Of a stretch of DNA of 64,000 nt, positions 22,379 to 45,170 are shown in pieces. Source of the DNA: Leucobacter sp. 7(1) (GTDB lineage: Bacteria > Actinomycetota > Actinomycetes > Actinomycetales > Microbacteriaceae); contig NZ_FUID01000033.1 of the NCBI RefSeq assembly GCF_900163635.1, positions 62,001 to 126,000 of the forward strand, read 5' to 3'. A model generated the notes under the pieces. It was not told where the DNA came from. It searched no databases and saw only the letters and a list, made by a program, of their open reading frames with translations. The position numbers and the translations under genes were made by a program. Numbering within the stretch: position 1 is the first letter of the stretch; each line of letters opens with the position of its first letter.

Positions 22379-23946
22379 CGCGCGCGTCGGCGAAGGAGGA
22401 GCATCGCTCCCGTGAGGAGACTGACGGCCGCGAGCGTAATGAAGGGCGCGGGGCCGGAGCTTCCCGTTCGTGCGAGCTTCGTACCGGCCCAGTCGGCACC
22501 TCCGTTCGTCGGAGGAGTCGTGGGGGTCACCGGTCCCGTGGGTTCGCTCGGGCCACCGGGCTCGGTGGGCACCGTCGGATCCGTGGGGTCGCCCGGGTCG
22601 GTTGGCTCACCCGGGTCGGTTGGCTCGCCGGGGTCGGTCGGATCAATTGGGTCGGTCGGGTCCGTGGGATCGGTAGGATCCACCTTGGAACGCGTGAACG
22701 TCCAGGGGCCGACGAACTCGAGGTCCGCCCCATCGACCACCTGCACGGATGGTTCCCAACCCGCAAACTGCCAGAACCCGTCTGGCACCGTGACCGTGCG
22801 GGCCTCAATCGGTTCGGGCGTCACTTCACTCCCCTGCACCGCACTGCCCGGCTCGGGGAGCAACGCCGTCACCGCCGCGGGGAGTGTGCCCCCCGCCGTG
22901 TCTTGGAAGGAATAGTTCACCGCGAACTCGGCGTCGGGGTCCACCGTGTACGCCCATTCACCCTGGAAGCGGAGGTTGGCGGCCTCGACGACCGCCTGTT
23001 CGGGCACCCACCCGGTAAACGACCAGCTGCCCTGTCCTTCGCGCACCGTGGTGACCGCTGGTGCGGGTGGGGTCACCACGCTGCCATCGACCTGCATCGT
23101 GGCTCGTGGGGGAAGCAGTTCGAGCACAGACTCAGGGAGCGCGCGGCCGGCGGTGCTGCTCACGAACTCGAATTCTGCATCGTACGTCTGGACCATCGTG
23201 AGATCTACCGCGTTTCCGGTGGCATCGAAGGTGAGTGGCATCATCGCGTGGAAGAACGCGTCCATCCGCATCTCGCCGCTCACCGTCGGATCGGTCATCG
23301 TGAACGTTTTTCCCGCGACGAATGCCGACTGCGGCACATAGAACGCGCGCGCCGGGGTCGTCAGGCTCAGAGACTGCGGCTGATTCGCATCGAGCTGGGC
23401 CCCGGTGACCTTGCTCCCGTCTTCGTTGACCAGCACGAACTCGGCGGCATAGCGTCCGGTCCCGGCATCGTAGGACACTGAGGTGCACCGGATGAACGAG
23501 CTGAGCTCCGTGTCGGGGTTCTGAGCTTCCACCTCGGACTGGAGCGCATCGCACTCGACGAACGCGGGATCACTCAATACGACATCACTGTCGACGGTGA
23601 AGGAGATATCCCAGTTCCCGCTGAAGGTCTTCTCTGCCCATCGGGCTGGAGTGTTCCCGGAGCCGAACCCCCAGACGGTCTTGAAGAGTCGGTAGGAACG
23701 CCACAGGCTCGTCATGTCCAGGTTGCCGCGGTAGGCAATCTGGTAGGCCGTGTCCGGAGAATTACCCTTCGCGGAGTCATACAGGAACTCGCTGTTGCTC
23801 GTGATCTGCCCGCTGTTGTCGATCGCGTAGGCATCTGCCGACACCGCGATCGTGACCGGTGTGGCTGCGTGTGCGGGCGTGGCGAGTCCGAGCAGTGCGA
23901 CGCAGGCGGCAAGCGCCATGGCAGCGAGCGTGGTGGTGCGTTTCAT
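22375..23946 (-). CDS. LAXTG-anchored protein with two SHIRT-like domains
   Basis: 523 residues. The signal peptide is MKRTTTLAAMALAACVALLG with a cleavable AHA. An unrecognised N-terminal head (about 30-270) contains two conserved Cys (in FVECDAL and IRCTSV). Two repeats of about 80 residues follow; they begin FEFVSS or VNYSFQDTAGG, have LPxxVxxLLP, and end GxWxFxGW...FxGxW, as in SHIRT domains of streptococcal 'periscope' proteins. A TDP/GEP stalk, LARTG, a helix and RRRAR complete it. ATG 23946 has GGGGGGAAA eight bases upstream. Its stop codon overlaps the stop of the convergent giant gene (bases 22375-22378, CTAG). Confidence 0.82.
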   Translation of the reverse strand: MKRTTTLAAMALAACVALLGLATPAHAATPVTIAVSADAYAIDNSGQITSNSEFLYDSAKGNSPDTAYQIAYRGNLDMTSLWRSYRLFKTVWGFGSGNTPARWAEKTFSGNWDISFTVDSDVVLSDPAFVECDALQSEVEAQNPDTELSSFIRCTSVSYDAGTGRYAAEFVLVNEDGSKVTGAQLDANQPQSLSLTTPARAFYVPQSAFVAGKTFTMTDPTVSGEMRMDAFFHAMMPLTFDATGNAVDLTMVQTYDAEFEFVSSTAGRALPESVLELLPPRATMQVDGSVVTPPAPAVTTVREGQGSWSFTGWVPEQAVVEAANLRFQGEWAYTVDPDAEFAVNYSFQDTAGGTLPAAVTALLPEPGSAVQGSEVTPEPIEARTVTVPDGFWQFAGWEPSVQVVDGADLEFVGPWTFTRSKVDPTDPTDPTDPIDPTDPGEPTDPGEPTDPGDPTDPTVPTEPGGPSEPTGPVTPTTPPTNGGADWAGTKLARTGSSGPAPFITLAAVSLLTGAMLLLRRRAR

Positions 23947-33567: not shown

Positions 33568-33729
33568 TAGCACGAGAGTGGTCAAGATTTCTACGACACG
33601 CCTAAGTTTGAAAGTTCGTGTATTCGAACATTAGGGTGATGGGTGTCATTCACGTGTGAGTGTGGGCAGGATGTTCACACGATGATCGGGCCGGATGATC
33701 CGGACGACCACAGATGAGAGGTGCTGCCC

Positions 33730-35562
33730 ATGACCGATCCGAGTCAGCTCACGATCCCCGCCGAGATTCGCAATGCATACGTCCGAGACTTCGTTTCCGA
33801 ATGGGCCGCGATCACGCAGCCCGAGCGCATCGAGCTCGTCGACGCCGCGGACGACGACCGCCTGCTCGCAGAGGCGCTCGCGGCAGGGGAGCTTTTGCCC
33901 GCGGGCGTTGGTCGCTACTACTCCCGCTCCCACACCAAGGACACTGCCCGCTCCGAGGAGCGCACAGTTGTCGCCACCGCGGATCCCGCAGACCGGGGTG
34001 TGTACAACAACTGGCAGCCCTCTCGTGAGGTGAAATCAGCTCAGGTGAAACGCATGCGCGGTGCCTCCCGGGGCAAAACGATGTACGTGATTCCCTACCT
34101 CATGGCACCGGTCGGGACACCACTCGCGGCATACGCAGTCGGGGTTGAACTCACCGACGACCGCAACGTCGTGCTCCAAATGATTCGCATGGCACGAGTG
34201 GGGCAGCACCACCTCGATACCCTCGCCGATCCGGCGTTCTTTGTGCGCGGCGTCCATGTCACCGGTGACCTGATGGCCCTCGGCCAGGGCACCGACGCCG
34301 ACAAGCGACTCTTCGCGACAATCGCCGACGAGCGCACGATCCTCCACTATGGATCCGCCTACGGCGGGAACGCGCTGCTCGGCAAGATCGCCCACGCACT
34401 CCGCCTCGCCTCGTATGACGGTCGCGTCTCGGGACAGTTCCTCGCCGAGCAGTTCTTGCTTCTGGGGATCGTGGACCTCGACACTGGCGTGCGGCGGCAC
34501 GTGTGCGGCGGCTTCCCCAGTGCGTCCGGGAAAACGAACCTCGCGATGACACTCCCACCGGACGCGCTCCAGGGCCGGTACCGGGTCGAACTCTACGGCG
34601 ATGACATCGCGTGGATGTGGGTCGACGAAGACGGGAAGCTGCGTGCGATCAACCCAGAGAACGGGATATTCGGGGTCGCGAAAGATACGAACGAGGACAC
34701 CAACCCGACGGCGATGGCGGCGATCGCCCCGGGGTCCGGCACCATCTTCACGAACGTCGCCTACAACGCGCGTACCCAGGACGTGTGGTGGGAGGGTCTC
34801 ACTCCGGAACCGCCCGCCGAGCTCGATGGCTGGTTGGACTGGACCGGGCAGCCTGTAGCGGATCGCGCCCCGGGCGAGCGTGACGCTCCGTGGGCCCACC
34901 CCAACAGTCGCTTCACGGTCGCGCTCGACCGGATCCCAAACATCGCGCCCGACGTCAACGACCCGGACGGCGTGGTGATCGACGCGGTGATCTTCGGCGG
35001 TCGCACCCGGGACCGCGAACCGCTGATCCGCGCGATCGACAACCTCGCCGAGGGGGTGTATGACGGGCTGACGCTCGGTGCCGAAGCCACGTTCGCCGCG
35101 GAAGGGGTCGACGGGCAGCTGCGCTACGACCCTATGTCGATGCGGCCCTTCCTGTCCTACGGGGAGGGCGACTATGCCCAGCACTGGCTCGATGTTCTGA
35201 GCCGGGTGACCGAGCAGCCCGCCTTCGCGCACGTCAACTGGTTCCAGCGCGATCCGGAGGACGGCAGCTACCTGTGGCCCGGGTACCGGGAAAACCTGCG
35301 CGCACTGCTGTGGCTGCTGCGGCACCGGCGCGGGGAAGTCGTAGGCAATGCCACCGCCGTCGGTACGATCCCGCAGGCCTCGGAGCTTGAGCTGGAGGAT
35401 CTCGACCTGGCACCGAGTGTGCTGGACCGCATCCTCACGATCAACCGCGCGCGGTGGCAGCAGGAAATGACGTTCCGAGAGGAGCACCTGCGACAGTTCG
35501 AGCGGCTCCCCGAGGAGATTTGGGACGCGCACCGCCGAGTCGTGGCGGCCCTCGACGAGTAA
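33730..35562 (+). CDS. pckG: Phosphoenolpyruvate carboxykinase (GTP)
   Basis: 610 residues, normal length for the GTP-dependent enzyme that makes PEP from oxaloacetate in gluconeogenesis. Visible motifs are the GTP-binding P-loop FPSASGKTNLAM (about residue 261), the metal-binding region GDDIAWMW, and the segments AYGGNALLGKIA, NPENGIFGVA and the WFQRDPEDGSYLWPG lid side. ATG 33730 has GAGAGG eight bases upstream; GTG 33721 is possible but lies in the Shine-Dalgarno region. It is divergent from the nrd operon. The 177 bases after it hold no gene I can support, only a 26-codon ATG frame at 35565-35645. Confidence 0.96.
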   Translation: MTDPSQLTIPAEIRNAYVRDFVSEWAAITQPERIELVDAADDDRLLAEALAAGELLPAGVGRYYSRSHTKDTARSEERTVVATADPADRGVYNNWQPSREVKSAQVKRMRGASRGKTMYVIPYLMAPVGTPLAAYAVGVELTDDRNVVLQMIRMARVGQHHLDTLADPAFFVRGVHVTGDLMALGQGTDADKRLFATIADERTILHYGSAYGGNALLGKIAHALRLASYDGRVSGQFLAEQFLLLGIVDLDTGVRRHVCGGFPSASGKTNLAMTLPPDALQGRYRVELYGDDIAWMWVDEDGKLRAINPENGIFGVAKDTNEDTNPTAMAAIAPGSGTIFTNVAYNARTQDVWWEGLTPEPPAELDGWLDWTGQPVADRAPGERDAPWAHPNSRFTVALDRIPNIAPDVNDPDGVVIDAVIFGGRTRDREPLIRAIDNLAEGVYDGLTLGAEATFAAEGVDGQLRYDPMSMRPFLSYGEGDYAQHWLDVLSRVTEQPAFAHVNWFQRDPEDGSYLWPGYRENLRALLWLLRHRRGEVVGNATAVGTIPQASELELEDLDLAPSVLDRILTINRARWQQEMTFREEHLRQFERLPEEIWDAHRRVVAALDE

Positions 35563-35739: not shown

Positions 35740-36045
35740 ATGGAACCCGCCGTACCTTTCGACATGGACGCGATTCGACGTGCCTGTGCACGGTATGGCG
35801 TCGAACGGTTGCGAGTATTCGGGTCGGTGCTCACGGACCGTTTTGACCAGCAGCTCAGCGACGTCGACTTCCTGGTCACCTTTCAACCTGGCCGCGCGAA
35901 CCGATTTCACGACTACTTCGATTTCAAGTTTGAGCTTGAGCGGATCCTTGAGCGAGAAGTTGATCTCGTTGTGGAGAGCGCGATGAAAAATCCCTACTTC
36001 AAGGCTTCGGTCCTCGACACGGCGCAGGATCTCTATGCGGCCTGA
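35740..36045 (+). CDS. MntA-type minimal nucleotidyltransferase antitoxin
   Basis: About 101 residues with the Pol-beta nucleotidyltransferase motif: RLRVFGS followed by SDVDFLV. In known MntA proteins AMP is transferred to the HEPN toxin to silence it. The spacing between GS and DVD is 11 residues rather than the common 10. The C-terminal part has the expected third acidic residue region (EREVDLVV). A second start, ATG 35764, is possible. It overlaps the following HEPN gene by 11 bases. Confidence 0.85.
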   Translation: MEPAVPFDMDAIRRACARYGVERLRVFGSVLTDRFDQQLSDVDFLVTFQPGRANRFHDYFDFKFELERILEREVDLVVESAMKNPYFKASVLDTAQDLYAA

Positions 36046-36376
36046 AGCGCGTACCTATCTCTGGGAGGCCGCCGAGGCGGCGAAGCTCGCCTACGCCTTC
36101 GCCCGCGAACGGAGCTTAACGGAGTTTAGCTCCGATATTCTGGTCCGTTCGGCCGTCGAGCGGCAGCTCGGGATCCTGGGCGAGGCGTTGAATCGCCTCC
36201 GAAGAATTGATCCGGGTGTGGCCGACCGGGTTCCGAACCTGGCTCGGATCGTGGGGATGCGGAATCTCCTCGCCCATGAATACGGGGACATCGACACTGA
36301 GATTGTGTGGCGTGCTGCCACGACCGACATGACCGCACTCATCTCGGTACTCGGTGCGATGTTGGGCGAACCTTGA
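36035..36376 (+). CDS. HepT-type HEPN ribonuclease toxin (DUF86)
   Basis: 113 residues, all-helical. The HEPN nuclease motif R-x4-H appears as RNLLAHEYG, with the typical upstream ERQLGILGEALNRL helix. In the type VII MntA/HepT system it is an RNase neutralised by AMPylation. It lies directly after and overlaps the nucleotidyltransferase gene, the canonical order for a HEPN/MNT pair in many genomes. Confidence 0.87.
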   Translation: MRPEARTYLWEAAEAAKLAYAFARERSLTEFSSDILVRSAVERQLGILGEALNRLRRIDPGVADRVPNLARIVGMRNLLAHEYGDIDTEIVWRAATTDMTALISVLGAMLGEP

Positions 36377-36407: not shown

Positions 36408-36701
36408 TTAGCGCAGCTGAGCGGCGAGGCCCGCGGCGTCCTGCTGGATCCACTACTCCGCGATCAGGCCGTCCAGGACGCGATTCACGGCGCTGCCGAC
36501 AGTCTCGATGGGTCGGCCCGTCGAAGCGTGCCCGTCGATCTCGCCCACGTAGTGCCCGCGCTGCGTCCAGCGGGCATACACCTTGTCGCCGTCGACGAGC
36601 AGCTCGTCCACGGTGAACTCGAAATTGCCGAACATCTCGCCAATCTTTTCGATGTGTTCCGTGTGGTTCGCGTGGCTCCGCTCTAGGGTCGGTGGTTGCA
36701 T
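36408..36701 (-). pseudogene. Truncated ester-cyclase (SnoaL-like) remnant
   Basis: The frame from 36701 encodes GEMFGNFEFTVDELLVDGDK, VYARWTQRGHYVGE and TGRPIETVG, which resemble the SnoaL-like polyketide cyclase fold. The N-terminal third is missing. TAG at 36453-36455 interrupts the conserved end; the frame continues after it as WIQQDAAGLAAQLR to TAA at 36408. Missing N-terminus plus an internal stop suggest a decayed gene. Confidence 0.6.
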
Positions 36702-36703
36702 TG

Positions 36704-37954
36704 CTAGAAGATGTCAGGTGGGCGGTTTGTGCCTGCCGGGGATCCAAACCGGGGCCGTTCAAGCCAGCGAAGAAATTTCAGCCCGGAATGCAGTTCGAGT
36801 CTGACGAGCGGGTGGAGCGGGTCAGCACCGATGATGTCTTCAATTCGCTGGAGATGGTTGTACACGCTGGAACGGTGCATGTGGAGTTCGTCCGCGACGC
36901 GTTGCACAGGGCCAGGGGAGCTATAGACCTGTTCGAGGATTCGCATCCGCTCGGTGCCTCCGGGTGCGCGGCTCAAATTGAGAAGTCTCTGCGACGGATG
37001 CGTTGAAGCTGTGTGAGCAAAGAGTTGGTAGATTCCGATTTCCTCAAACAGTGCGCTGCCAATGTCCGGATCGACGGCTCTCGCCTGAAGCGCGGTTACA
37101 GCTTGCCGATACGCGGTGCGACAGCCGCGAGGCTCGTGCACAACGGCGCTCACTCCGTAGGGTACGACGGCCGCGCGCATATCGGCCGTGCGCAAGCGCA
37201 GCGCATGTGAGAGCTTTGCGATGAAGTCGTCGATTGAGACGTGCGAGCGGATCAGGAAGACCCCGTGCTGATCATCGGTGAACGACACGATCTGCGGGGC
37301 GTCTGGACCAAAGTCACCGGTGGGGAACAGTGCGCGCGAAGCGTCGTGGAGTGCCTGTCGGTATGCCAGTGAGGGAAGGGTCTGCTCCGAGCGGGAGGTA
37401 GCGCCGCCGGAGAATACGACCAAGCGGACATCGCTCGCCGCCTCAAATCGGGCGGCGAATTCGTCAGAAGCGCTTTCGCTCCGGCCGCTGACAAGATCTT
37501 GCAGATCGTTGTTGCAGACCGTGCCCTGTTCGACGTTCGCGCCCAACGCTACGAGAACTCGGCCAGCGAGGTGTTCGATCCCGCTCTGCCAGCTTTGCAA
37601 GTCCTCAAGCGTGCTGCGGAGATCATCGTCGGCGCAATTCGCCTGCACCCAGATGTATCCGACCCGCACCCCGCGCACGAGCAGCGGAATGCAAATTCTG
37701 GGCAAGAGTCCAATCTGCGGGTCACCCGGGACCGAAAAGACCCGGGTGCGTGAGTTCACTCCGTGCTGAGCTTCCCAACTGCGTGTACCGGAAGGGACCT
37801 CTTTCGCGAGTACCGCGTCGATGCGCACGCGATCGGCCGTTGGAGTGATCGTGCTGTACGCGAGTACCCGGCCTGTCACATCGTCAAGGGAAACATTTCG
37901 AATGGTGCGCGCGGACACGAGAGAGACGACCTCGTCCAACTCATGTTGATTCAT
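36704..37954 (-). CDS. PucR-family transcriptional regulator
   Basis: 416 residues. The C-terminal helix-turn-helix (about 355-385, VQRVADELHMHRSSVYNHLQRIEDIIG) is the PucR C-terminal domain. The middle holds a GGDEF-like/CdaR domain and the N-terminus may sense a ligand. Regulators of this type control uptake and breakdown of purines, amino acids or sugar acids. It is divergent from a dehydrogenase-transporter operon, with an 18-bp palindrome between them, so it probably controls both directions. Its C-terminal tail extends past the usual end by about 20 residues. Confidence 0.88.
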   Translation of the reverse strand: MNQHELDEVVSLVSARTIRNVSLDDVTGRVLAYSTITPTADRVRIDAVLAKEVPSGTRSWEAQHGVNSRTRVFSVPGDPQIGLLPRICIPLLVRGVRVGYIWVQANCADDDLRSTLEDLQSWQSGIEHLAGRVLVALGANVEQGTVCNNDLQDLVSGRSESASDEFAARFEAASDVRLVVFSGGATSRSEQTLPSLAYRQALHDASRALFPTGDFGPDAPQIVSFTDDQHGVFLIRSHVSIDDFIAKLSHALRLRTADMRAAVVPYGVSAVVHEPRGCRTAYRQAVTALQARAVDPDIGSALFEEIGIYQLFAHTASTHPSQRLLNLSRAPGGTERMRILEQVYSSPGPVQRVADELHMHRSSVYNHLQRIEDIIGADPLHPLVRLELHSGLKFLRWLERPRFGSPAGTNRPPDIF

Positions 37955-38027
37955 CGTGGCCTTTCTCTGTCACCGTTTGCCGCGAGTCATTGGAACCTCC
38001 GGGCAGCGGGCGACGCGAAATGGAGTG

Positions 38028-38045
38028 GTTCGACAATTGTCGAAC
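38028..38045. promoter_or_regulatory. 18-bp perfect palindrome, probable PucR-family operator
   Basis: GTTCGACAATTGTCGAAC is fully self-complementary. It lies 73 bases from the regulator start and 122 bases from the dehydrogenase start, in the only divergent promoter region of this cluster. Confidence 0.7.
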
Positions 38046-38167
38046 TTTGGGCCGGGGAACGTCAACACTTCTCTCGTGTTTCGGGTGAGGAGCTTCCGTA
38101 ACCTCGGTGTGAACGGGCCGCGCATGCGACTCCATTTACGCCATTCAACGACGAAAGAGAGCAGATC

Positions 38168-39070
38168 TTGGTAGCACACGTGGGCTTTGTTGGCCTCGGG
38201 AACATCGGGAGCCGAGTGGCTCCCCACCTGCTCAACGCCGGCCATCGCCTTGCGGTGTCAGATCTGAACACGGCCGCGGTCGAGGCCCTTGTCGCGCAGG
38301 GAGCACGAGCCGCAGAATCCGCGGCAGACACAGCCCGTGACGCAGACATTGTGATCTTGAGTTTGCCTTCTCCCGCCATTGTTCGGACTGTTGTTGCGGG
38401 CAACGACGGCGTGCTCGCAGGGGCAAAGCCCGGCACGATCATTGTGGACCACAGCACCATTGATCCCGAAACTGCGCGTGAAGTTGCGGGACTCGCCGCG
38501 GCAGTTGGCGTGACCTACCTTGATGCGCCGGTGAGTGGAGGAGTCCAGGGAGCTGAGGCCGGGACACTTTCGATCATGGCCGGGGGTGATGCGGGCGCGT
38601 TTGAACGGGTTCGCCCAGTCCTGGAATCGTACTCGGGGAACGTGTTCCTCGTGGGCGAAACGGGAAGTGGTCAGGCAATCAAGCTGGCCAATAACATCAT
38701 CACGGCAATCAACATCGCGGCGCTCGGTGAAGGCCTGAGCGCAGCGGTGGGCGCAGGGGTCGATCTTGACACCGCCGCGAAGGTGCTCTCCACGAGTTCC
38801 GCGAACAGCCATGTGCTATCGAGCTACTTCCCGCGCACACTTTTCACGGAGGACCGGCCCACGGGCTTTGCCCTCGACTTCATGCTCAAAGACATCAAGC
38901 TCTTCTTGAACTCCACCGCCCAGACGGCGCTCCCGACCCCGGTGTCCAACGTGGTGGGTGACCTATTCCGTATTGGCAACCGCGACGGCCGTGGTGCGAA
39001 GGACTTCACGAGCGTCGTCGAGTTCTACGAAGACTTCACCGGCACTCGGCTTCAGACGAAGGGAAACTGA
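38168..39070 (+). CDS. 3-hydroxyisobutyrate-dehydrogenase-family oxidoreductase
   Basis: 300 residues. The NAD(P)-binding start VGFVGLGNIGSRVAPHLLNA, the substrate signature DAPVSGGVQGAEAGTLSIMA and the catalytic Lys in GSGQAIKLANNI are typical of beta-hydroxyacid dehydrogenases. The acidic residue after the second strand (SDLN) suggests NAD. The exact substrate (hydroxyisobutyrate, serine, threonate or similar) cannot be read. It starts with TTG at 38168, preceded by GAAAGAGAG, and is the first gene of a run of five. Confidence 0.88.
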   Translation: MVAHVGFVGLGNIGSRVAPHLLNAGHRLAVSDLNTAAVEALVAQGARAAESAADTARDADIVILSLPSPAIVRTVVAGNDGVLAGAKPGTIIVDHSTIDPETAREVAGLAAAVGVTYLDAPVSGGVQGAEAGTLSIMAGGDAGAFERVRPVLESYSGNVFLVGETGSGQAIKLANNIITAINIAALGEGLSAAVGAGVDLDTAAKVLSTSSANSHVLSSYFPRTLFTEDRPTGFALDFMLKDIKLFLNSTAQTALPTPVSNVVGDLFRIGNRDGRGAKDFTSVVEFYEDFTGTRLQTKGN

Positions 39071-39075
39071 ACGCC

Positions 39076-40551
39076 ATGATCGTCCAGACAACTCTGAGTT
39101 CGGGTGTCGCAGATGCGCCACAGGTGCCCCAGCTGATTGGGGGCAAGTGGGGTGCCTCGATGGGAGGCGAATGGACTGCGGTAGAGAACCCCGGCCGCAA
39201 GCAAACGCTCGCCTTTGTTCCCGCATCTGACGAGCGTGACGTTGACGCCGCGGTCACTGCGGCAGCGGCAGCATTCCGCACCTGGGGAAGGCTGCCCGCT
39301 CGCGATCGTGGTCGCATGTTGCTCGCGATCGGCGACAAGATCGGGGATCACCAAGAGGAGCTCGCCCTGTTGATCGCCTCTGAAACCGGAAATGCCCTCC
39401 GGACTCAAGCTCGCGGTGAGGCCGCGTCGGGTGCCGATATCTTCCGGTTCTACGGAGAGGTCGCCTCACAGCAGAAAGGCGAGACGCTGCCGTTCGGCGA
39501 CGGACTCCTCTCCTACACAGTCCGAGAGCCCATCGGCGTTGTTGGCGGAATCGTTCCTTGGAATGCTCCAGTGACGCTGTCATCGTTGAAGATCGCGATG
39601 GCGCTGATGACGGGGAACACGCTCGTATTGAAGGCGGCGGACCTGGCACCACTTGCAGTGCTGAAACTTGCCGAGTGGGCCAGTGAGATCCTGCCCCCTG
39701 GCGTTCTCAACGTGCTCACCGGATCTGGATCGCGAGCGGGTGCGGCGCTTGCTCGACACCCTCGAGTTTCGAAGCTTACCTTCACCGGTTCGACGGGAGT
39801 GGGGAAGGGCATCATCGCCGCTGCAGCGGATCGTATCGCGCCGGTCACGCTTGAACTGGGCGGCAAATCACCCGTGATCGTGTTCCCGGACTCGAACGAC
39901 GCTGAGACCGTCCAACATGTCATCAACGCGATGCGATTTACCCGCCAAGGACAGTCGTGCACGGCCGGATCCCGGCTGTATCTCCACGAGAGCATCTTTG
40001 ATGACTTCGTGGCGAAACTGGCGAATCAGCTCCAGCAGCTGCACGTGGGCGATCCGCTTGACGAGGCGTCTGACATCGGCGCAATCGTCAACGAGCATCA
40101 GCATGCGTCCGTGCTGTCGTACATCGCGGGCGCAATCGATGCAGGGGGTGAGCTTGTCGCCGGTGGGGTATCGAATCCGACTGACCGGGACGGGTACTAC
40201 ATTGCTCCGACTATCATCAAGGGAGCGCGAGCTGACTGGGCCGTCACCCGTGAGGAAGTGTTTGGGCCGGTTCTTGTTGTTATTCCCTGGAGTGACGAGG
40301 ATGAAGTACTCACGTGGGCAAACGATAGCGACTACGGGCTCGCAGGCTATGTCTTCACGAAAGATATCTCGACCGCGCTTCGCATGGTCAACGGCTTGGA
40401 AGCGGGCTGGCTGCAGGTGAACCGCGGCGGCGGACAGCTCCCCGGGATGTCGTACGGCGGGAACAAGCAGAGCGGACTGGGTCGGGAATACTCACTCGAC
40501 GGTGCGCTCGAGAGCTTCACAAATGTAAAGAACGTCACCATCGCGATTTAG
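39076..40551 (+). CDS. NAD(P)-dependent aldehyde dehydrogenase
   Basis: 491 residues. All core motifs are present: GGIVPWNAPV, FTGSTGVGKGI (cofactor loop), LELGGKSPVIVF (catalytic Glu), RQGQSCTAGSRLY (catalytic Cys), EEVFGPVLVV and NRGGGQLPGMSYGG. It turns an aldehyde into a carboxylate. It starts five bases after the dehydrogenase, with GAAGGGAAA in the end of that gene, so the two are tightly coupled. A CoA-dependent methylmalonate-semialdehyde role is not supported by any specific feature I can see. Confidence 0.92.
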   Translation: MIVQTTLSSGVADAPQVPQLIGGKWGASMGGEWTAVENPGRKQTLAFVPASDERDVDAAVTAAAAAFRTWGRLPARDRGRMLLAIGDKIGDHQEELALLIASETGNALRTQARGEAASGADIFRFYGEVASQQKGETLPFGDGLLSYTVREPIGVVGGIVPWNAPVTLSSLKIAMALMTGNTLVLKAADLAPLAVLKLAEWASEILPPGVLNVLTGSGSRAGAALARHPRVSKLTFTGSTGVGKGIIAAAADRIAPVTLELGGKSPVIVFPDSNDAETVQHVINAMRFTRQGQSCTAGSRLYLHESIFDDFVAKLANQLQQLHVGDPLDEASDIGAIVNEHQHASVLSYIAGAIDAGGELVAGGVSNPTDRDGYYIAPTIIKGARADWAVTREEVFGPVLVVIPWSDEDEVLTWANDSDYGLAGYVFTKDISTALRMVNGLEAGWLQVNRGGGQLPGMSYGGNKQSGLGREYSLDGALESFTNVKNVTIAI

Positions 40552-40560
40552 CAGGGGATT

Positions 40561-40619
40561 GGGTGCCGTGTGATGTGCACGCGGCACCCCAGGGTCCGGG
40601 GGAGGACAGCCCGGGCCCT
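40561..40619 (+). promoter_or_regulatory. Two hairpins between aldehyde dehydrogenase and symporter genes
   Basis: GGGTGCCG/CGGCACCC (40561-40568 and 40582-40589) is followed by AGGGTCCGGG/CCCGGGCCCT (40591-40600 and 40610-40619, one mismatch). Neither has a T run. They may stabilise the 3' end of the upstream message or attenuate read-through into the symporter gene. Confidence 0.45.
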
Positions 40620-40715
40620 GCCGAGTCGAGCGTTCGCTCACACACTGAAGACGTTACAAGGAGGAAACGTGTTCGTTCAGGTTCGGATTGAGTCTTCACA
40701 GAGGAAGGTTGAATC

Positions 40716-42206
40716 ATGGAAATAATCGACTGGGTGATTGTCGCCTTCTACCTGGTGATCATCATCGTTATCGGCATGGCCGGGCTGAAAAAGGTGAAGA
40801 CAGGCCGTGACTTCGCGGTAGCTGGATCGTCGTTGCCGGTAGGCATCGTGACGGCAACGCTCGCTGCAAGCTACATCGGTGGCTCGTTTGCCATTGGCGC
40901 GGCAGGGGCGACATTCCGAGAGGGATACACATACTTTTTCGCGTTGCTCGGCTTCCCTCTTGCCACGATCGCTGTCGGGATCTGGGTCGCACCCCGGCTG
41001 CGTCGCTATGCCGCTGAAACCGTCGGTGACGTCATGGAGCATCACTATGGGGTGGTCGCACGTGTCTTCACCGGTCTGATTTCTATGGTTGTCTGCGCAG
41101 CGATCTTGGGTGCGCAGATCCGCGCACTGGGGACGATTCTCGAAGTCTTCACCGGGGTCGACTTCACCATCGGGGCAATCGTGCTGACGGCTATCGTGAT
41201 CGTCTACTCAACGGCGGGTGGTCTCTGGTCTGACGTGAGAGCGGACGTGATCCACTTCGCGGTGCTCGCAATCGCCATTCCTGTCGCGATTCTGGTGGCG
41301 ATCCGAAGCGTCGGAAGTCCGGCCGATATCGCGGCCTCTCTCCCGCCAGAGTTCTTCACAATCACCGGAGATAAGTCGCTCGGCTTCTTCATTAGCCTCT
41401 TCATCGGCTTTGTCTTTGGCGAAACCCTGATTCAGCCCTACTCTCAGCGGGCCTTTGCCGGGGCAAACACGAAAACAGTGCGGAAGGCGTTCATCTACGC
41501 CGGGATCTTTGGCATCGTGTTCCTCTTCACTACATCGTCGGGCGGGCTTCTGGCCCGGGCGCTTGATCCGTCCATCCCCTCCGATGCAGCAATGCCGGAG
41601 CTGATCAATCGGGTCATTCCGGCGGGCTTCACAGGGCTGCTCGTTGCAGGCTTTATCGCGATCATCATGTCGAGTGCGTCATCGTTCCTGAACTCCACGA
41701 CCGTGGTGGTGGTTCGCGACCTCTGGACGCTGGGCGGCCGCCGGAAGATTGAGGACCACACGAGGCTGCGATTCCAACGCGTGATGAATCTCGTGATTGG
41801 CGTGGTGGCACTCGCTGTGGGGCTCTCATTCCCCAACATCATCGACATATTGATGGTGTACTTCTCCACCTGGGCACCCACCGTGATCGTCCCGCTGCTT
41901 TTGGGTGTGCTCTTCGACTTCCGCCATAAGCTTGCGGGTCCAATCGCGATGGTCGCTGGCCTGCTTGCAACCTTTATTTGGAACGGGCCGTTGGGCGAGC
42001 CCTTTGGGATTCTGGGCCTCGCGGTTGGGCTTGTCACCAACCTCATCGTGTTCTTTGTTGTGGTTGCGTTGACCCCCAAGACAGGGATGGCACCGGAAGG
42101 CTTTGACATTGTCGCGCCAACAACTGCAGCTGTTGAGGCCGTCTGGGATGAGACCAGCGGAACGAGCGGCGACACCGTCGTGACGACACCGAGTGAAAGG
42201 TCATAG
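40716..42206 (+). CDS. Sodium:solute symporter (SSS family)
   Basis: 496 residues with about 13 hydrophobic helices. The N-terminal helix WVIVAFYLVIIIVIGMAG is followed by TGRDFAVAGSSLP, the helix-1/2 motif of SSS carriers, and TATLAASYIGGSF. It imports an organic solute with sodium. AGAGGAAGG lies seven bases before ATG 40716. Its place between catabolic enzyme genes suggests it takes up their substrate. It is followed two bases later by a tiny membrane-protein gene. Confidence 0.9.
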   Translation: MEIIDWVIVAFYLVIIIVIGMAGLKKVKTGRDFAVAGSSLPVGIVTATLAASYIGGSFAIGAAGATFREGYTYFFALLGFPLATIAVGIWVAPRLRRYAAETVGDVMEHHYGVVARVFTGLISMVVCAAILGAQIRALGTILEVFTGVDFTIGAIVLTAIVIVYSTAGGLWSDVRADVIHFAVLAIAIPVAILVAIRSVGSPADIAASLPPEFFTITGDKSLGFFISLFIGFVFGETLIQPYSQRAFAGANTKTVRKAFIYAGIFGIVFLFTTSSGGLLARALDPSIPSDAAMPELINRVIPAGFTGLLVAGFIAIIMSSASSFLNSTTVVVVRDLWTLGGRRKIEDHTRLRFQRVMNLVIGVVALAVGLSFPNIIDILMVYFSTWAPTVIVPLLLGVLFDFRHKLAGPIAMVAGLLATFIWNGPLGEPFGILGLAVGLVTNLIVFFVVVALTPKTGMAPEGFDIVAPTTAAVEAVWDETSGTSGDTVVTTPSERS

Positions 42207-42208
42207 CA

Positions 42209-42334
42209 ATGTATGGAGTCATTCTGTACGGAGGAGTATTCCTCGCGATCCTGACGGGACTCGCGGTCACGGCGATGGGCCTCCCGCCCACGTTGCGTGA
42301 CCTCCGGGACGCATTTCGGGGCGACCCGGAGTGA
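42209..42334 (+). CDS. 41-residue symporter-associated membrane peptide
   Basis: A small ORF. ATG 42209 is two bases after the symporter stop, with AAAGG nine bases upstream, and the stop is TGA at 42332-42334. The peptide has one hydrophobic helix (about 5-25, ILYGGVFLAILTGLAVTA) and a charged tail with LRDLRDAFRGD. Small single-helix partners encoded directly after SSS and NSS transporters are known (for example MetS beside MetP). I infer that this is such an accessory subunit. Confidence 0.72.
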   Translation: MYGVILYGGVFLAILTGLAVTAMGLPPTLRDLRDAFRGDPE

Positions 42335-42344
42335 AAAAACTTGC

Positions 42345-42388
42345 ACCGGCGGGGCGCGCGCCTAGGCCCGGGCGTGCACCCCGCCGGT
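42345..42388 (+). terminator. Hairpin between small peptide and SHMT-like gene
   Basis: ACCGGCGGGG (42345-42354) pairs with CCCCGCCGGT (42379-42388), with extra pairing in the loop. No T run is present. It may reduce expression of the last gene. Confidence 0.45.
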
Positions 42389-42446
42389 TGCGAGACTCGA
42401 TCTTGAGTCGCCTGAGCCCCTTCGCTAACACAGACGAGAGACCGGA

Positions 42447-43808
42447 ATGAACCCCCACGTGTTGTCCCAACCCCTTGCCCCCTGGGCAACATCGGAGGCG
42501 AAACAACGGCTTGCGGAGCTGACGGATACGCATCGGGAACTCAGTGCCGACCGGGTTGCGAGCGCGGTTGCCACTGCGACCGCCAGTCAAATGCATCGCT
42601 TCGGTGCTGACGGTCTCAGTTTGTACGCCGGCAGCAATGTTCTCTCGCCCAAGGTCATCGCCGCGCACGAAACTCGACTCGCCACACGTCCAGCCTTGGG
42701 ATGGCCAGGTGAGAAGATCCAGCCCGGGCTTGAGGGTATTGAAGCGCTTGAAGTTATTGCAGCGCAGCAGTTGCGCCGCGCTTTTGGCGCAGCGTTTGCA
42801 GAGCCACGGTTTGTCACCGCAACGCTCGCAAATCTCGCAGCGTACACGGCGCTGGCGGAGCCTGGCGATACGCTCGCGGTCCTCTCGCCTGCGGCAGGGA
42901 GTCACGCGAGCCACCACAGCAGTGGCACGGCGGGGGTACGGGGCTTGCGAACCGTCCCACTGCCGTACGACGCTGTTGCTGGTGACGTCGATGTGTCTCA
43001 GCTGGATGACTTTATGGCGGCCGTGCGGCCGCGTGTGATCCTCGTGGGTGGCAGTGTGATCCAATTTCCGACGAACATTGCCCCGCTTCGCGAGGCCGCC
43101 GATCGCTGGGACGCCAAGCTTGTCTTTGACGCGTCGCACGTCGCGGGTCTGATCGCGGCCGGAGTGTTCCCCAACCCGCTCGCGGAGGGGGTCGATCTCA
43201 TGACCTTTTCGACCTATAAGACACTCGCTGGCCCGGCCGGCGGAGGGGCAGTCTCAAACCACGCCGAGATCGCCGAGCGAGTCACGGATGCGCTCTACCC
43301 AGTCCTGTCCTCGAACTATGATCCGGCGCGGCTGGGCCCGCTCGCGGTCGCGACGGCAGAAGCTGTTGAGCAACAACCCGCCTGGGCACAACGTACGGTT
43401 GAGCTCGCTGTGGCCATTGCGGAACGATTCGCCGCACGCGGTCTCCGGGTACAGGGTGCCGACCGCGGGTACACAATGTCACATCAGGTTGTGGTCGACG
43501 TTTCGGAGTTTGGTGGCGGTGTGAGCGCAATGCGAGCGCTCGAAGCTGCAGGGGTATTTGTGGGGGCCTGCCGTCTGGCTGCGGATGATTCTGCAGCTCC
43601 GCCCGCAGGAATGCGTCTCGGGACCCAGGAGATCGTGCGGTTGGGGGCGAGCTACGAGCACGCCGAACCAATTGTTGAACTGATCTGTCGAATACTTCGT
43701 GGTGGCGCGGCGGCGCTCACCTCAAGTGAGGTCGAGAACTCGCACGAACGGACAGCTGAGATTCGTCGTTCCTTCGGCAGTGACCTCTGGGGGAGGCCTC
43801 CCGAATAG
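42447..43808 (+). CDS. SHMT-like PLP enzyme (probable beta-hydroxyamino acid aldolase or transferase)
   Basis: 453 residues, fold type I PLP family. The pyridoxal Lys segment reads FSTYKTLAGPAGGGAV, where true SHMT has THKTLRGPRGG. DASHVAGLIAAGVF carries the PLP-contact Asp and His. YAGSNVLSP and SHASHHSSG correspond to the substrate and PLP-phosphate regions. The changed residues near the Lys and the catabolic setting suggest cleavage of a hydroxyamino acid to glycine or alanine plus an aldehyde, instead of housekeeping folate chemistry. The cluster is followed by a strong hairpin (43823-43859). Confidence 0.8.
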   Translation: MNPHVLSQPLAPWATSEAKQRLAELTDTHRELSADRVASAVATATASQMHRFGADGLSLYAGSNVLSPKVIAAHETRLATRPALGWPGEKIQPGLEGIEALEVIAAQQLRRAFGAAFAEPRFVTATLANLAAYTALAEPGDTLAVLSPAAGSHASHHSSGTAGVRGLRTVPLPYDAVAGDVDVSQLDDFMAAVRPRVILVGGSVIQFPTNIAPLREAADRWDAKLVFDASHVAGLIAAGVFPNPLAEGVDLMTFSTYKTLAGPAGGGAVSNHAEIAERVTDALYPVLSSNYDPARLGPLAVATAEAVEQQPAWAQRTVELAVAIAERFAARGLRVQGADRGYTMSHQVVVDVSEFGGGVSAMRALEAAGVFVGACRLAADDSAAPPAGMRLGTQEIVRLGASYEHAEPIVELICRILRGGAAALTSSEVENSHERTAEIRRSFGSDLWGRPPE

Positions 43809-43822
43809 CGCAGAAGAACCGC

Positions 43823-43859
43823 TCAGCGAGCCAGAATCAAGAGGGTCCTGGCTCGCTGA
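43823..43859. terminator. Strong hairpin between convergent genes
   Basis: TCAGCGAGCCAG (43823-43834) is perfectly complementary to CTGGCTCGCTGA (43848-43859). It lies between the SHMT-like gene and the convergent NmrA-like gene. Confidence 0.65.
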
Positions 43860-43898
43860 AGGGTGTGTCCAGGAGGCGTTGCAGAACGCCCTGCCCTC

Positions 43899-44759
43899 CT
43901 ACTGGGCCACGTCGGCAGCCCACTCGCTCACGGGGCGCGGCTGCAGCCCGAACAGCTGCTGTGCGCTTCTCGCCGCCGACACGACGAACCGATCCTGCGT
44001 ATTGAGCGCGCGGTAGAGGCCAACGACGGGGCCCGCCCCGGGACCAAAGAGCGGGGTGATGAGTTCACCGAACTGGTCGGGTGTGATGCCCTCGAAGCGC
44101 ACGTCTTGGCCCCACGCACTGCCCAGTTCGGTGGCGAGGTCGGCGCCGGTGAGGCCGGGCAAGTGCCCGACGGACACGGTCCCCGTGACTGTGGTGTCGG
44201 TGAGGAGATGTGCGGCCACCGCCGCCACGTCGGTGTGGGAACTCCAGGACACCGGGTAGTCGGCGGGAAGTGGGTAGCGCAGTACGCCCTCGCTGCGTGC
44301 CGGTCCCTGGATTACGGGGAGCAGGAGGTTTTCGAGGTACAGTCGCGGCTCGACAACGGCGGTGGAAACGCCAGAGTCGGTGACCTTGCGGATGAGTGTG
44401 GCGAGCGGGCTATCGGCGGGGGCCTGCATCGGCGAATCAGGTTCGCTCACCACTGTGCCGCTCGTGGAGATCACCACGCGCGCCGGGCGTGCGGCTGAAA
44501 TTGCGGCCGCGATTGCCACAGCCTGGAGCTGTGCCTGCGCCGGATCGGTGAGGGGGAGGTGCACAAACACGCCGGCGGCACCGGTGTACAGCGTGGTGAG
44601 CGCGGCAGCGTCGGTGAGGTCAACCGAGGCACCCGTGACATCGTCGGGGAGTGCGGTGATATTACGGACGGCTGCGGTCACGTCGTGGCCCGCAGCGCGG
44701 AGGGCGGAAAGGACTGGGGAACCTTGAGCGCCGGTGGCGCCGTGAATGATGAACGTCAT
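43899..44759 (-). CDS. NmrA-like NAD(P)-binding protein
   Basis: 286 residues, atypical short-chain dehydrogenase fold. The nucleotide loop IIHGATGAQGSPVLSALRAAG is N-terminal. RVVISTSGT and the VVEPRLYLENLLLP region follow, as in NmrA/QOR2-type quinone reductases or redox sensors. The usual Tyr-x3-Lys is absent. It is divergent from an HxlR regulator with 45 bases between starts, the common arrangement for HxlR-controlled oxidoreductases. Confidence 0.82.
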   Translation of the reverse strand: MTFIIHGATGAQGSPVLSALRAAGHDVTAAVRNITALPDDVTGASVDLTDAAALTTLYTGAAGVFVHLPLTDPAQAQLQAVAIAAAISAARPARVVISTSGTVVSEPDSPMQAPADSPLATLIRKVTDSGVSTAVVEPRLYLENLLLPVIQGPARSEGVLRYPLPADYPVSWSSHTDVAAVAAHLLTDTTVTGTVSVGHLPGLTGADLATELGSAWGQDVRFEGITPDQFGELITPLFGPGAGPVVGLYRALNTQDRFVVSAARSAQQLFGLQPRPVSEWAADVAQ

Positions 44760-44804
44760 GCCTCTATTAGTGCATATCCTGCATCAGTTACGTCAAGTGA
44801 ACTA

Positions 44805-45170
44805 ATGGCGCGTATGATCGCTCTCATGAGTTCCACAGATCTGCCCGAGTGCGGGGTCGCGCGATTCCTCATGCTGTGCAACGGGCCCTGGGCCACACTG
44901 ATCGTGCGCGAATTGCTGCACGGACCCCAGCGGTTCGGGGAGCTACGCGAGGCGCTTCCTGGGATCAGCGCGCACACGCTGACAAGCCGCCTGCGCAGCT
45001 TTGAGGAGCGCGGGATCCTCACGCGTACGGCCTACGCAGAGATACCGCCCCGTGTTGTGTACGAGCTCACGGACTTGGGGCGTGAACTTCGCCCGGTGCT
45101 TGACGCGATGAACGCATGGGGGAGCACCGCGCCAGCGTCTGCATTTACCGCCGTGTCAGTCGACGCGTAA
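44805..45170 (+). CDS. HxlR-family transcriptional regulator
   Basis: About 114-121 residues. CGVARFLMLCNGPWATLIV, LLHGPQRFGELREALPGIS (HTH) and PRVVYELTDLG are diagnostic for HxlR winged helices. ATG codons at 44805, 44814 and 44826 are in frame; no clear Shine-Dalgarno separates them. The short intergenic region holds ATTAGT/ACTAAT half-sites that may be the operator. It probably controls the divergent NmrA-like gene in response to aldehydes, quinones or redox stress. Confidence 0.86.
   Translation: MARMIALMSSTDLPECGVARFLMLCNGPWATLIVRELLHGPQRFGELREALPGISAHTLTSRLRSFEERGILTRTAYAEIPPRVVYELTDLGRELRPVLDAMNAWGSTAPASAFTAVSVDA

What the first reader, a model, noticed from the sequence alone, without database searches (positions are those of the whole stretch)
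36704..43808. Candidate new catabolic system: PucR regulator, hydroxyacid dehydrogenase, aldehyde dehydrogenase, symporter, micro-peptide, SHMT-like enzyme
Five same-strand genes divergent from a PucR-family regulator would form a complete uptake and breakdown route. The symporter imports a solute, the PLP enzyme could split a beta-hydroxy-alpha-amino acid into an amino acid and an aldehyde, and the two dehydrogenases could oxidise the alcohol and aldehyde groups. I do not know a characterised pathway with this exact gene set.
Basis: partly seen in the sequence, partly recalled or inferred. Interest (0 to 1): 0.72.

Follow-up and report, generated by a model that had tools for sequence, protein, structure and literature searches.

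The report
Mobile six-gene amino-acid breakdown cassette
Six neighbouring genes in a Leucobacter bacterium form a compact, transferable unit that probably imports and breaks down a hydroxylated amino acid, using an enzyme that descends from a common vitamin-dependent enzyme but has lost the parts needed for the ordinary reaction.

Summary
It is a real unit: the SHMT-like gene occurs in 3 of 54 Leucobacter genomes, each time with all six genes in the same order, at two unrelated sites. At both sites a relative without the unit shows an empty site, and the extra DNA is the six genes. A perfect palindrome before the operon occurs once per genome, only in those three. The PLP enzyme is not folate SHMT: 12 of 12 aligned members of its clade keep the PLP residues but lack Glu53, Tyr51, Tyr61 and His225. 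The HIBADH-ALDH pair recurs in Pseudomonadota with other PLP enzymes. The small peptide recurs behind the closer symporter relatives. The chemistry is inferred. Preferred: oxidation of a serine-type CH2OH to an aminomalonate, then PLP decarboxylation; folate-free aldol cleavage is nearly as likely. Verdict: a new variant of a known kind (TRIS-degradation clusters are the closest analogue), substrate open.

The parts
36704..37954 (-). PucR-family regulator, 416 aa, divergent from the operon
   Evidence: Pfam HTH_30 42.6 bits; 57% identical orthologue at the same place in L003 and L004
38028..38045 (.). Perfect 18-bp palindrome GTTCGACAATTGTCGAAC, core TTCGACAATTGTCGAA at 38029-38044: candidate operator of the PucR regulator
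   Evidence: the core occurs once per genome and only in the 3 of 54 Leucobacter genomes that carry the cassette
38168..39070 (+). 3-hydroxyisobutyrate-dehydrogenase-like beta-hydroxyacid dehydrogenase, 300 aa; substrate motif DAPVSGGVQGAEAG and catalytic Lys/Asn motif GETGSGQAIKLANN present
   Evidence: nearest solved chain 2-hydroxymethylglutarate dehydrogenase 3cky
39076..40551 (+). Aldehyde dehydrogenase, 491 aa; Cys and Glu motifs GQSCTA and LELGGK present (their catalytic role recalled)
40716..42206 (+). Sodium:solute symporter (SSS) family uptake protein, 496 aa
   Evidence: nearest solved chains are choline transporters
42209..42334 (+). 41-aa peptide with one hydrophobic helix, 2 bp after the symporter gene: candidate symporter small subunit
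   Evidence: comparable peptides follow related symporters in Oceanisphaera and two Cytobacillus plasmids
42447..43808 (+). SHMT-like PLP enzyme, 453 aa, clade without Glu53/Tyr51/Tyr61/His225
43823..43859 (+). Strong hairpin just after the last gene, possible transcription terminator (no U tract)
   Evidence: z -4.3, 0 of 200 shuffles as good; not found by the terminator scan
36690..43889 (.). Inserted segment: the DNA missing at the empty site of the relative G323 (ends approximate)

Best explanation
This is a horizontally moved, substrate-induced uptake-and-breakdown cassette for a serine-type amino acid that carries a CH2OH group next to its carboxylate (for example alpha-methylserine or 2-hydroxymethylserine). 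SHOWN by sequence: the six genes move as one unit; there is a candidate operator; the PLP enzyme keeps PLP binding residues and lacks residues of the folate/retro-aldol reaction. INFERRED: the symporter with its small subunit imports the amino acid; the PucR protein senses it at the palindrome; the HIBADH-like enzyme oxidises CH2OH to the semialdehyde; the ALDH oxidises that to a 2-aminomalonate; the SHMT-like enzyme, folate-free, breaks the C-C bond (preferred reaction: decarboxylation) to give an ordinary amino acid such as alanine, serine or glycine.
For: Unit: same order in three genomes and two empty sites whose extra DNA is the six genes; lower GC than the flanks in all three copies (0.612 vs 0.653/0.664; 0.648 vs 0.715/0.685; 0.684 vs 0.746/0.717). 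Control: palindrome once per genome, only in 3 of 54. PLP enzyme: 12 of 12 clade members keep His122, Asp197, His200, Lys226, His312 and Arg358 (T. thermophilus numbering) but have Glu53 to L/I/M, Tyr51 to P/A, Tyr61 to Q/P/E, His225 to Y; the clade is one side of a 100/98 branch. [quoted passage not shown] 13 by title: 2-amino-2-methylmalonic acid). HIBADH: substrate and catalytic motifs present; PMC3642240 (passages) reports a HIBADH that also oxidises L-serine and alpha-methyl-DL-serine, with low efficiency. HIBADH lies directly upstream of ALDH in 7 of 10 plasmid contexts examined; in one of the other three (Alisedimentitalea) a class III aminotransferase takes its place, so the ALDH probably consumes the aldehyde made next door. 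The three closest plasmid relatives of the symporter sit beside FAD amine/amino-acid oxidase-type genes or an octopine-type dehydrogenase; 3 of 6 symporter records have a PucR-type or diacid-recognition regulator next to or near them.
Against: No substrate or activity is shown. SHMT-like relatives elsewhere lack HIBADH/ALDH of this kind beside them: Pantoea has a GntR regulator and amino-acid ABC transporter genes; Paraburkholderia has what look like serine-deaminase and formaldehyde-oxidation genes, read by eye from an unannotated record. Both fit a direct aldolase better. Oxidation products of this type can lose CO2 directly (PMC2963168 reports 2-aminoacetophenone and CO2 from phenylserine oxidation), which would leave the PLP enzyme without that role. 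One control SHMT (L087) also lacks Tyr51, Tyr61 and His225, so of these only Glu53 marks the clade. Decarboxylation as the main reaction of an SHMT relative is unprecedented to my knowledge.
Confidence: 0.35

Rival explanations
1. Aldol-first: the SHMT-like enzyme cleaves the imported beta-hydroxy or alpha-substituted amino acid into an amino acid and an aldehyde, like alpha-methylserine aldolase. ALDH oxidises the aldehyde and the HIBADH-like enzyme then acts on the hydroxy acid.
For: Relatives of the enzyme sit next to amino-acid transporter genes without other enzymes (Pantoea), next to amino-acid transporter and DHA-kinase genes (Mesorhizobium), and next to probable serine deaminase and formaldehyde-oxidation genes (Paraburkholderia, read by eye). 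A THF-independent alpha-methylserine aldolase exists (PMC7918591, passages).
Against: Absence of Glu53 and Tyr61 in 12 of 12 members. If the product is just alanine plus formaldehyde, HIBADH and ALDH have no obvious task. The arrangement elsewhere suggests HIBADH before ALDH. Membership in the alpha-methylserine aldolase family could not be tested (no sequence at hand).
Confidence: 0.3
2. TRIS-like route: the imported solute is an amino alcohol (TRIS, 2-amino-2-methyl-1,3-propanediol, serinol). The two dehydrogenases turn one CH2OH into COOH and the SHMT-like enzyme then removes formaldehyde.
For: Same gene logic as the TRIS clusters (PMC10848231). The symporter's nearest solved relatives are choline transporters and the ALDH is near betaine/amino-aldehyde dehydrogenases among others.
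Against: In that paper TaoA is a GMC oxidoreductase and the uptake gene encodes an amino acid/polyamine transporter, not HIBADH or SSS. The HIBADH-like protein keeps the motif residues that bind the substrate carboxylate in relatives, so a substrate without a carboxylate is unlikely.
Confidence: 0.1
3. Two neighbouring functions: HIBADH-ALDH breaks down a plain 3-hydroxy acid and the symporter/SHMT-like pair handles an unrelated amino acid.
For: A HIBADH-ALDH pair occurs with CoA transferase and enoyl-CoA hydratase genes in Rhodococcus. The Azospirillum cluster holds HIBADH, ALDH and enoyl-CoA hydratase, but HIBADH and ALDH are not adjacent there. SHMT-like occurs without them elsewhere.
Against: The six genes sit together at two unrelated sites with nothing else on board.
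Confidence: 0.17
4. Ordinary folate SHMT with unrelated neighbours.
For: Best general family name is SHMT.
Against: Below the SHMT model's cut-off (257.8 vs 335 bits); absence of catalytic residues in 12 of 12; a second SHMT-type gene of the genome, G000:C83, keeps them; conserved cassette.
Confidence: 0.03

Closest known systems
TRIS degradation clusters tupA-taoA-taoB plus mSHMT and D-serine dehydratase (Holert et al. 2024, PMC10848231)
   Same: Uptake protein, alcohol DH and aldehyde DH acting in series, SHMT-type PLP enzyme, regulator; recent horizontal movement; compact clusters
   Different: TaoA is GMC-type, the uptake protein is an amino acid/polyamine transporter, the mSHMT is proposed to be THF-dependent with folate-recycling genes, D-serine dehydratase present, insertion elements at the flanks. 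Here: HIBADH-type, SSS plus micropeptide, PucR, folate residues lacking, no dehydratase, folate gene or insertion element in the inserted segment
Serine hydroxymethyltransferase (GlyA; M. jannaschii-type chains 4bhd/4uqv are the nearest solved; species recalled)
   Same: Same family, PLP lysine, Asp197, His200, Arg358 kept
   Different: Glu53, Tyr51, Tyr61, His225, Ser31 replaced; separate clade
Alpha-methylserine aldolase (THF-independent; seen only as passages in the review PMC7918591)
   Same: Folate-free PLP C-C lyase; possible substrate type
   Different: No sequence available here, so relatedness is untested
3-hydroxyisobutyrate dehydrogenase / L-serine dehydrogenase PA0743 / 2-hydroxymethylglutarate dehydrogenase
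   Same: Family motifs 2 and 3 complete; motif 1 with two substitutions (I for M, H for N); of motif 4 only KD; same chemistry expected on CH2OH beside COO-
   Different: Below the curated cut-offs of all 13 NCBIfam models matched
HIBADH-ALDH-GLUCM-like-SelA-like-GLUCM-like clusters of Bradyrhizobium, Sinorhizobium, Paraburkholderia, Caballeronia plasmids
   Same: HIBADH (45-48%) directly upstream of ALDH (53-58%); amino-acid uptake genes and a PLP enzyme nearby
   Different: Different PLP enzyme (TIGR03576-like, below its cut-off), GLUCM-like proteins, ABC transporter, LysR

Membership tests
Serine hydroxymethyltransferase | NCBIfam SHMT subfamily cut-off (PRK00011, 335 bits) | tested here: not met
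   257.8 bits
Serine hydroxymethyltransferase | PLP lysine, Asp197, His200, Arg358 | tested here: met
   all present, 12 of 12 members
Serine hydroxymethyltransferase | General base Glu53, Tyr61 and phosphate-binding Tyr51 | tested here: not met
   Leu84, Gln92, Pro82 in the window protein; absent in 12 of 12. Among the 9 other rows aligned: Glu53 kept in 8, Tyr51 in 6, Tyr61 in 6, His225 in 7; the row without Glu53 (L090) aligns poorly in this loop
Serine hydroxymethyltransferase | Folate-dependent serine/glycine interconversion | not testable with these tools
   needs an assay
Alpha-methylserine aldolase / hydroxymethyltransferase | Sequence kinship to the characterised enzymes | not tested
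   sequences not located; one Aminobacter hit fetched proved to be a glyA gene of a sarcosine oxidase operon
Fluorothreonine transaldolase (TIGR04506) | Equivalog cut-off 650 bits over a 609-position profile | tested here: not met
   145.7 bits, profile positions 66-382 only
3-hydroxyisobutyrate dehydrogenase family (broad) | Motifs 2 and 3 (DAPVSGGxxxAxxG, GxxGxGxxxKxxxN/Q) | tested here: met
   motifs as given in PMC3642240
3-hydroxyisobutyrate dehydrogenase family (broad) | Motif 1 GXXGXGXMGXXXAXNXXXXG and motif 4 KDLGXAXD, letter for letter | tested here: not met
   motif 1 reads GFVGLGNIGSRVAPHLLNAG (two substitutions), motif 4 reads KDIKLFLN; my motif 1 pattern was set one position off and found nothing
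3-hydroxyisobutyrate dehydrogenase sensu stricto (TIGR01692) | Equivalog cut-off 291.6 bits | tested here: not met
   251.6 bits
TRIS degradation cluster | GMC-type TaoA, amino acid/polyamine transporter, mSHMT with folate genes, D-serine dehydratase | tested here: not met
   none of these among the six genes; the inserted segment holds nothing else
PucR regulators | C-terminal HTH_30 above cut-off | tested here: met
   42.6 vs 27 bits
Sodium:solute symporters (SSS) | PF00474 above cut-off | tested here: met
   121 vs 22.8 bits; none of the 10 NCBIfam models matched reached its cut-off

The most novel reading that the evidence does not exclude
A folate-free, oxidation-first route for alpha-substituted serines: CH2OH to CHO to COOH by a HIBADH-ALDH module, then decarboxylation of the resulting 2-aminomalonate by an SHMT-derived PLP enzyme. 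The known side reaction of SHMT would here have become the main reaction of a separate enzyme clade, carried on a six-gene cassette together with a symporter that has a one-helix micro-subunit.
Probability: 0.28. Interest if true: 0.75.

Novelty: new variant of a known kind. Interest (0 to 1): 0.5.

Why it matters
It gives a minimal, testable catabolic unit: two natural empty sites define its ends, a single-copy palindrome gives a ready reporter, and five short genes can be expressed together. If the chemistry holds, it shows how an essential one-carbon enzyme was rebuilt into a folate-free lyase, how quaternary (alpha-substituted) amino acids can be used, and that a symporter subfamily carries an overlooked one-helix partner. 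It would also correct the label 'serine hydroxymethyltransferase' on a whole clade.

Tried and rejected
Rejected: ordinary SHMT; membership in the TRIS pathway; a wide spread in Microbacteriaceae; a transposon with terminal repeats (no shared words of 8-11 bases between two end stretches of 70 and 100 bases). My own early mapping, still in notebook entry 1, placed the lost glutamate at the wrong position (in the IASEN motif); it was corrected with the numbering of PMC10397204 and the aligned chains. The two Glu-keeping proteins L024 and L005 found with the same query are outside the clade and were used as controls. The alignment of row L090 is unreliable in the Glu53 loop and carries no weight.

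Rows dropped: a Sinorhizobium fredii match (H32, L029; query residues 113-371 only, and only a 66-aa open frame from the first base) was left out of the residue table and the tree; duplicate loci of the same genes were also left out.

Led nowhere: AlphaFold model of the SHMT-like protein from four rows, mean pLDDT 56.5, too poor to use, so no fold search was made. Paper searches with all terms required gave 0 papers for methylserine + hydroxymethyltransferase + aldehyde dehydrogenase + symporter, D-glutamate cyclase + aldehyde dehydrogenase + 3-hydroxyisobutyrate dehydrogenase, and Leucobacter + serine + catabol + symporter. Listings for aminomalonate catabolism, symporter small subunits and MetPS showed nothing on the point in titles and abstract starts.

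Limits: 10 ALDH contexts were examined of 41 records matched; two of the ten (L039, L040) were picked through their HIBADH match, so the 7 of 10 is not an unbiased rate, and several records are near copies. Symporter contexts: 6 of 6 records; the three more distant ones (L051-L053) have other neighbours (3-keto-5-aminohexanoate cleavage protein, agmatinase, aminotransferase). Micropeptide scan: the symporter loci were first scanned with a wider start range (-40 to +130) than the background (-25 to +40). On recount both hits of the 2-of-135 background were the Leucobacter symporters themselves, so the background is 0 of 133 in the narrow range and 1 of 133 in the wide range; the symporter loci give 5 of 9 and 6 of 9. 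Three of those nine are one Leucobacter lineage. Gene calls in L003-L005, L008 and L018-L024 are from a simple script of mine; the names given to unannotated neighbours there (CoA transferase, carboxyltransferase, formaldehyde-oxidation genes, serine deaminase) were read by eye from short translations and not tested.

Full report
What is there. The window lies in a Leucobacter genome held as G000, contig C56; the genus follows because the same-genus genomes G305 and G324 give the match at the same contig coordinates as the named Leucobacter records L003 and L004.

It is a unit. A scan for close relatives of the SHMT-like protein in one genome for each of 84,980 species gave three loci (the window's own genome may be left out there). 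Two of them, L. chromiireducens (L003) and Leucobacter sp. PH1c (L004), carry all six genes in the same order; the third (L005) is an archaeal SHMT-type gene that keeps Glu53, Tyr51, Tyr61 and His225. In the genus, 3 of 54 genomes have the gene at E <= 1e-60, the own one included. In 299 sampled genomes of the family one further match appeared (34%, G065), which keeps Glu53 and lies outside the clade. In 396 sampled genomes of the phylum, 7 matched at E <= 1e-50: the own one and six others that are clade members. The symporter at E <= 1e-100 was found in 1 of 299 family genomes, and at E <= 1e-70 in 1 of 396 phylum genomes, the window's own in both. The ALDH at E <= 1e-140 was found in 1 of 198 phylum genomes, again the own one.

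It moves as a unit. Similarity of window DNA to L003 and L004 is confined to the cassette (matches between 36729 and 43674). In the relative G323 (L068), window stretches 36410-36689 and 43890-45151 match at 87% and 85% but lie only 168 bases apart, against 7,200 in the window. There an open 148-aa SnoaL-like gene fills the place; in the window only part of it remains beside the cassette. Most simply, the cassette came in here rather than having been lost from G323. In G305 the stretches matching window PEPCK and NmrA, 8.3 kb apart in the window, are 151 bases apart. For the other site, G306 (L082) matches L003 4-4319 and 11336-13924 with 32 bases between, against 7,016 in L003. So at two unrelated sites the extra DNA is the six genes and nothing else. 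GC is lower than in the flanks in all three copies. I saw no terminal repeats and no transposase.

Control site. The divergent intergenic region holds a perfect palindrome whose 16-base core is identical in the three copies although the window's regulator is only 57% identical to the other two. The core occurs once per genome in exactly the three genomes with the cassette and in none of the other 51. A strong hairpin follows the last gene.

The PLP enzyme. They have G/A for Ser31, P/A for Tyr51, L/I/M for Glu53, Q/P/E for Tyr61 and Y for His225. One further partial match (L029) was left out. Not every control is clean: L087 has T for Tyr51, H for Tyr61 and Y for His225 but keeps Glu53, and L024 keeps only Glu53 of the changed set. 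Glu53 is the best single marker. The clade is one side of a branch with support 100/98 in a 19-row tree; the Pantoea row is a long branch. In the paper Glu53 is the preferred general base for cleavage with and without THF, and SHMT is said to decarboxylate aminomalonates. From memory, not read here: an E53Q mutant of a Bacillus SHMT loses the THF-dependent reaction but still cleaves allo-threonine; if so, lack of Glu53 excludes SHMT function more firmly than aldol cleavage.

The dehydrogenases. The HIBADH-like protein has motifs 2 and 3 of the family complete, motif 1 with two substitutions and of motif 4 only KD. It reaches no NCBIfam cut-off; its nearest solved chain is 2-hydroxymethylglutarate dehydrogenase. 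A related HIBADH also oxidises L-serine and alpha-methyl-DL-serine, with low efficiency (PMC3642240, passages). Among plasmid records, 10 ALDH contexts of 41 matched records were examined, two of them picked through HIBADH: HIBADH lies directly upstream of ALDH in 7 (L039-L044, L048). In the 5 of these with HIBADH at 45-48% identity, matches to GLUCM-like, SelA-like PLP enzyme and GLUCM-like proteins follow in that order; in L043 one transporter gene lies between ALDH and the first of them, and in L040 a gap of similar size. In L045 a class III aminotransferase stands in place of HIBADH; in L046 no HIBADH was found; in L047 it lies downstream and apart. So HIBADH-ALDH is a module that gets combined with different PLP enzymes, and the ALDH probably takes the aldehyde made by its neighbour.

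The transporter and its peptide. The nearest plasmid relatives (42%, 35%, 31%) lie next to FAD oxidase-type genes or an octopine-type dehydrogenase. In those three and the three Leucobacter copies a one-helix peptide of 33-41 aa starts from 20 bases before to 47 bases after the symporter's stop; in three more distant symporters (27-28%) none was found. Background, recounted without the symporters themselves: 0 of 133 genes in the narrow range, 1 of 133 in the wide range.

How it works. Preferred: import of a serine-type amino acid, oxidation of CH2OH to CHO and to COOH, then PLP decarboxylation. The first and last steps have a precedent in their families, and all three enzymes then act on one molecule in series. 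Nearly as likely: folate-free aldol cleavage first. The Pantoea, Mesorhizobium and Paraburkholderia neighbourhoods of the clade speak for that. Sequence alone does not settle it.

Compared with what is known. The closest system in logic is TRIS degradation (PMC10848231: abstract, passages, section 12 and part 1 of 2 of section 15 read), with different enzyme families. I found no paper that describes this gene set, in the searches only. Other papers: PMC7918591 passages, PMC2963168 part 1 of 4 and passages.

Noticed in passing
window 35740-36376: A nucleotidyltransferase / HepT-like ribonuclease gene pair (MNT-HEPN toxin-antitoxin type, recalled from the family names) lies left of the cassette, next to the SnoaL-like remnant.
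   Followed up: no
window 33721-35562 and G000:C89:10998-12821: GTP-type PEP carboxykinase occurs twice in this genome (75% identical); 5 of 54 Leucobacter genomes, the own one included, have a match at E <= 1e-150.
   Followed up: partly
window 36410-36689: Truncated remnant of a SnoaL-like gene that is open in the relative G323 (L068 9200-9646, minus strand), probably cut by the arrival of the cassette.
   Followed up: yes
L039, L040, L041, L043, L048: A conserved cluster HIBADH - ALDH - GLUCM-like - SelA-like PLP enzyme - GLUCM-like on rhizobial and burkholderial plasmids, with amino-acid ABC genes annotated nearby in four of the five (L040 has no annotation); function unknown to me.
   Followed up: partly
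L026 9431-9532, L027 9421-9540, L050 5485-5607: Unannotated 33-40 aa single-helix peptides behind SSS symporter genes in Oceanisphaera and Cytobacillus; possible small-subunit family missed by annotation (no NCBIfam family reached its cut-off).
   Followed up: partly
L007 6820-13975: Mesorhizobium plasmid gene row: amino-acid ABC transporter, SHMT-like clade member, DhaK, DhaL, FAD oxidoreductase; may hint at a triose-type product.
   Followed up: no
window about 15890-19220 and 22050-22680: BLAST against L068 gives many shifted overlapping matches, so these stretches probably hold long internal repeats.
   Followed up: no
L003 1584-4309 and L004 1542-4297: In the other two Leucobacter copies the cassette sits beside genes that look like a CoA transferase and a carboxyltransferase (read by eye), convergent with the PucR gene.
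   Followed up: no
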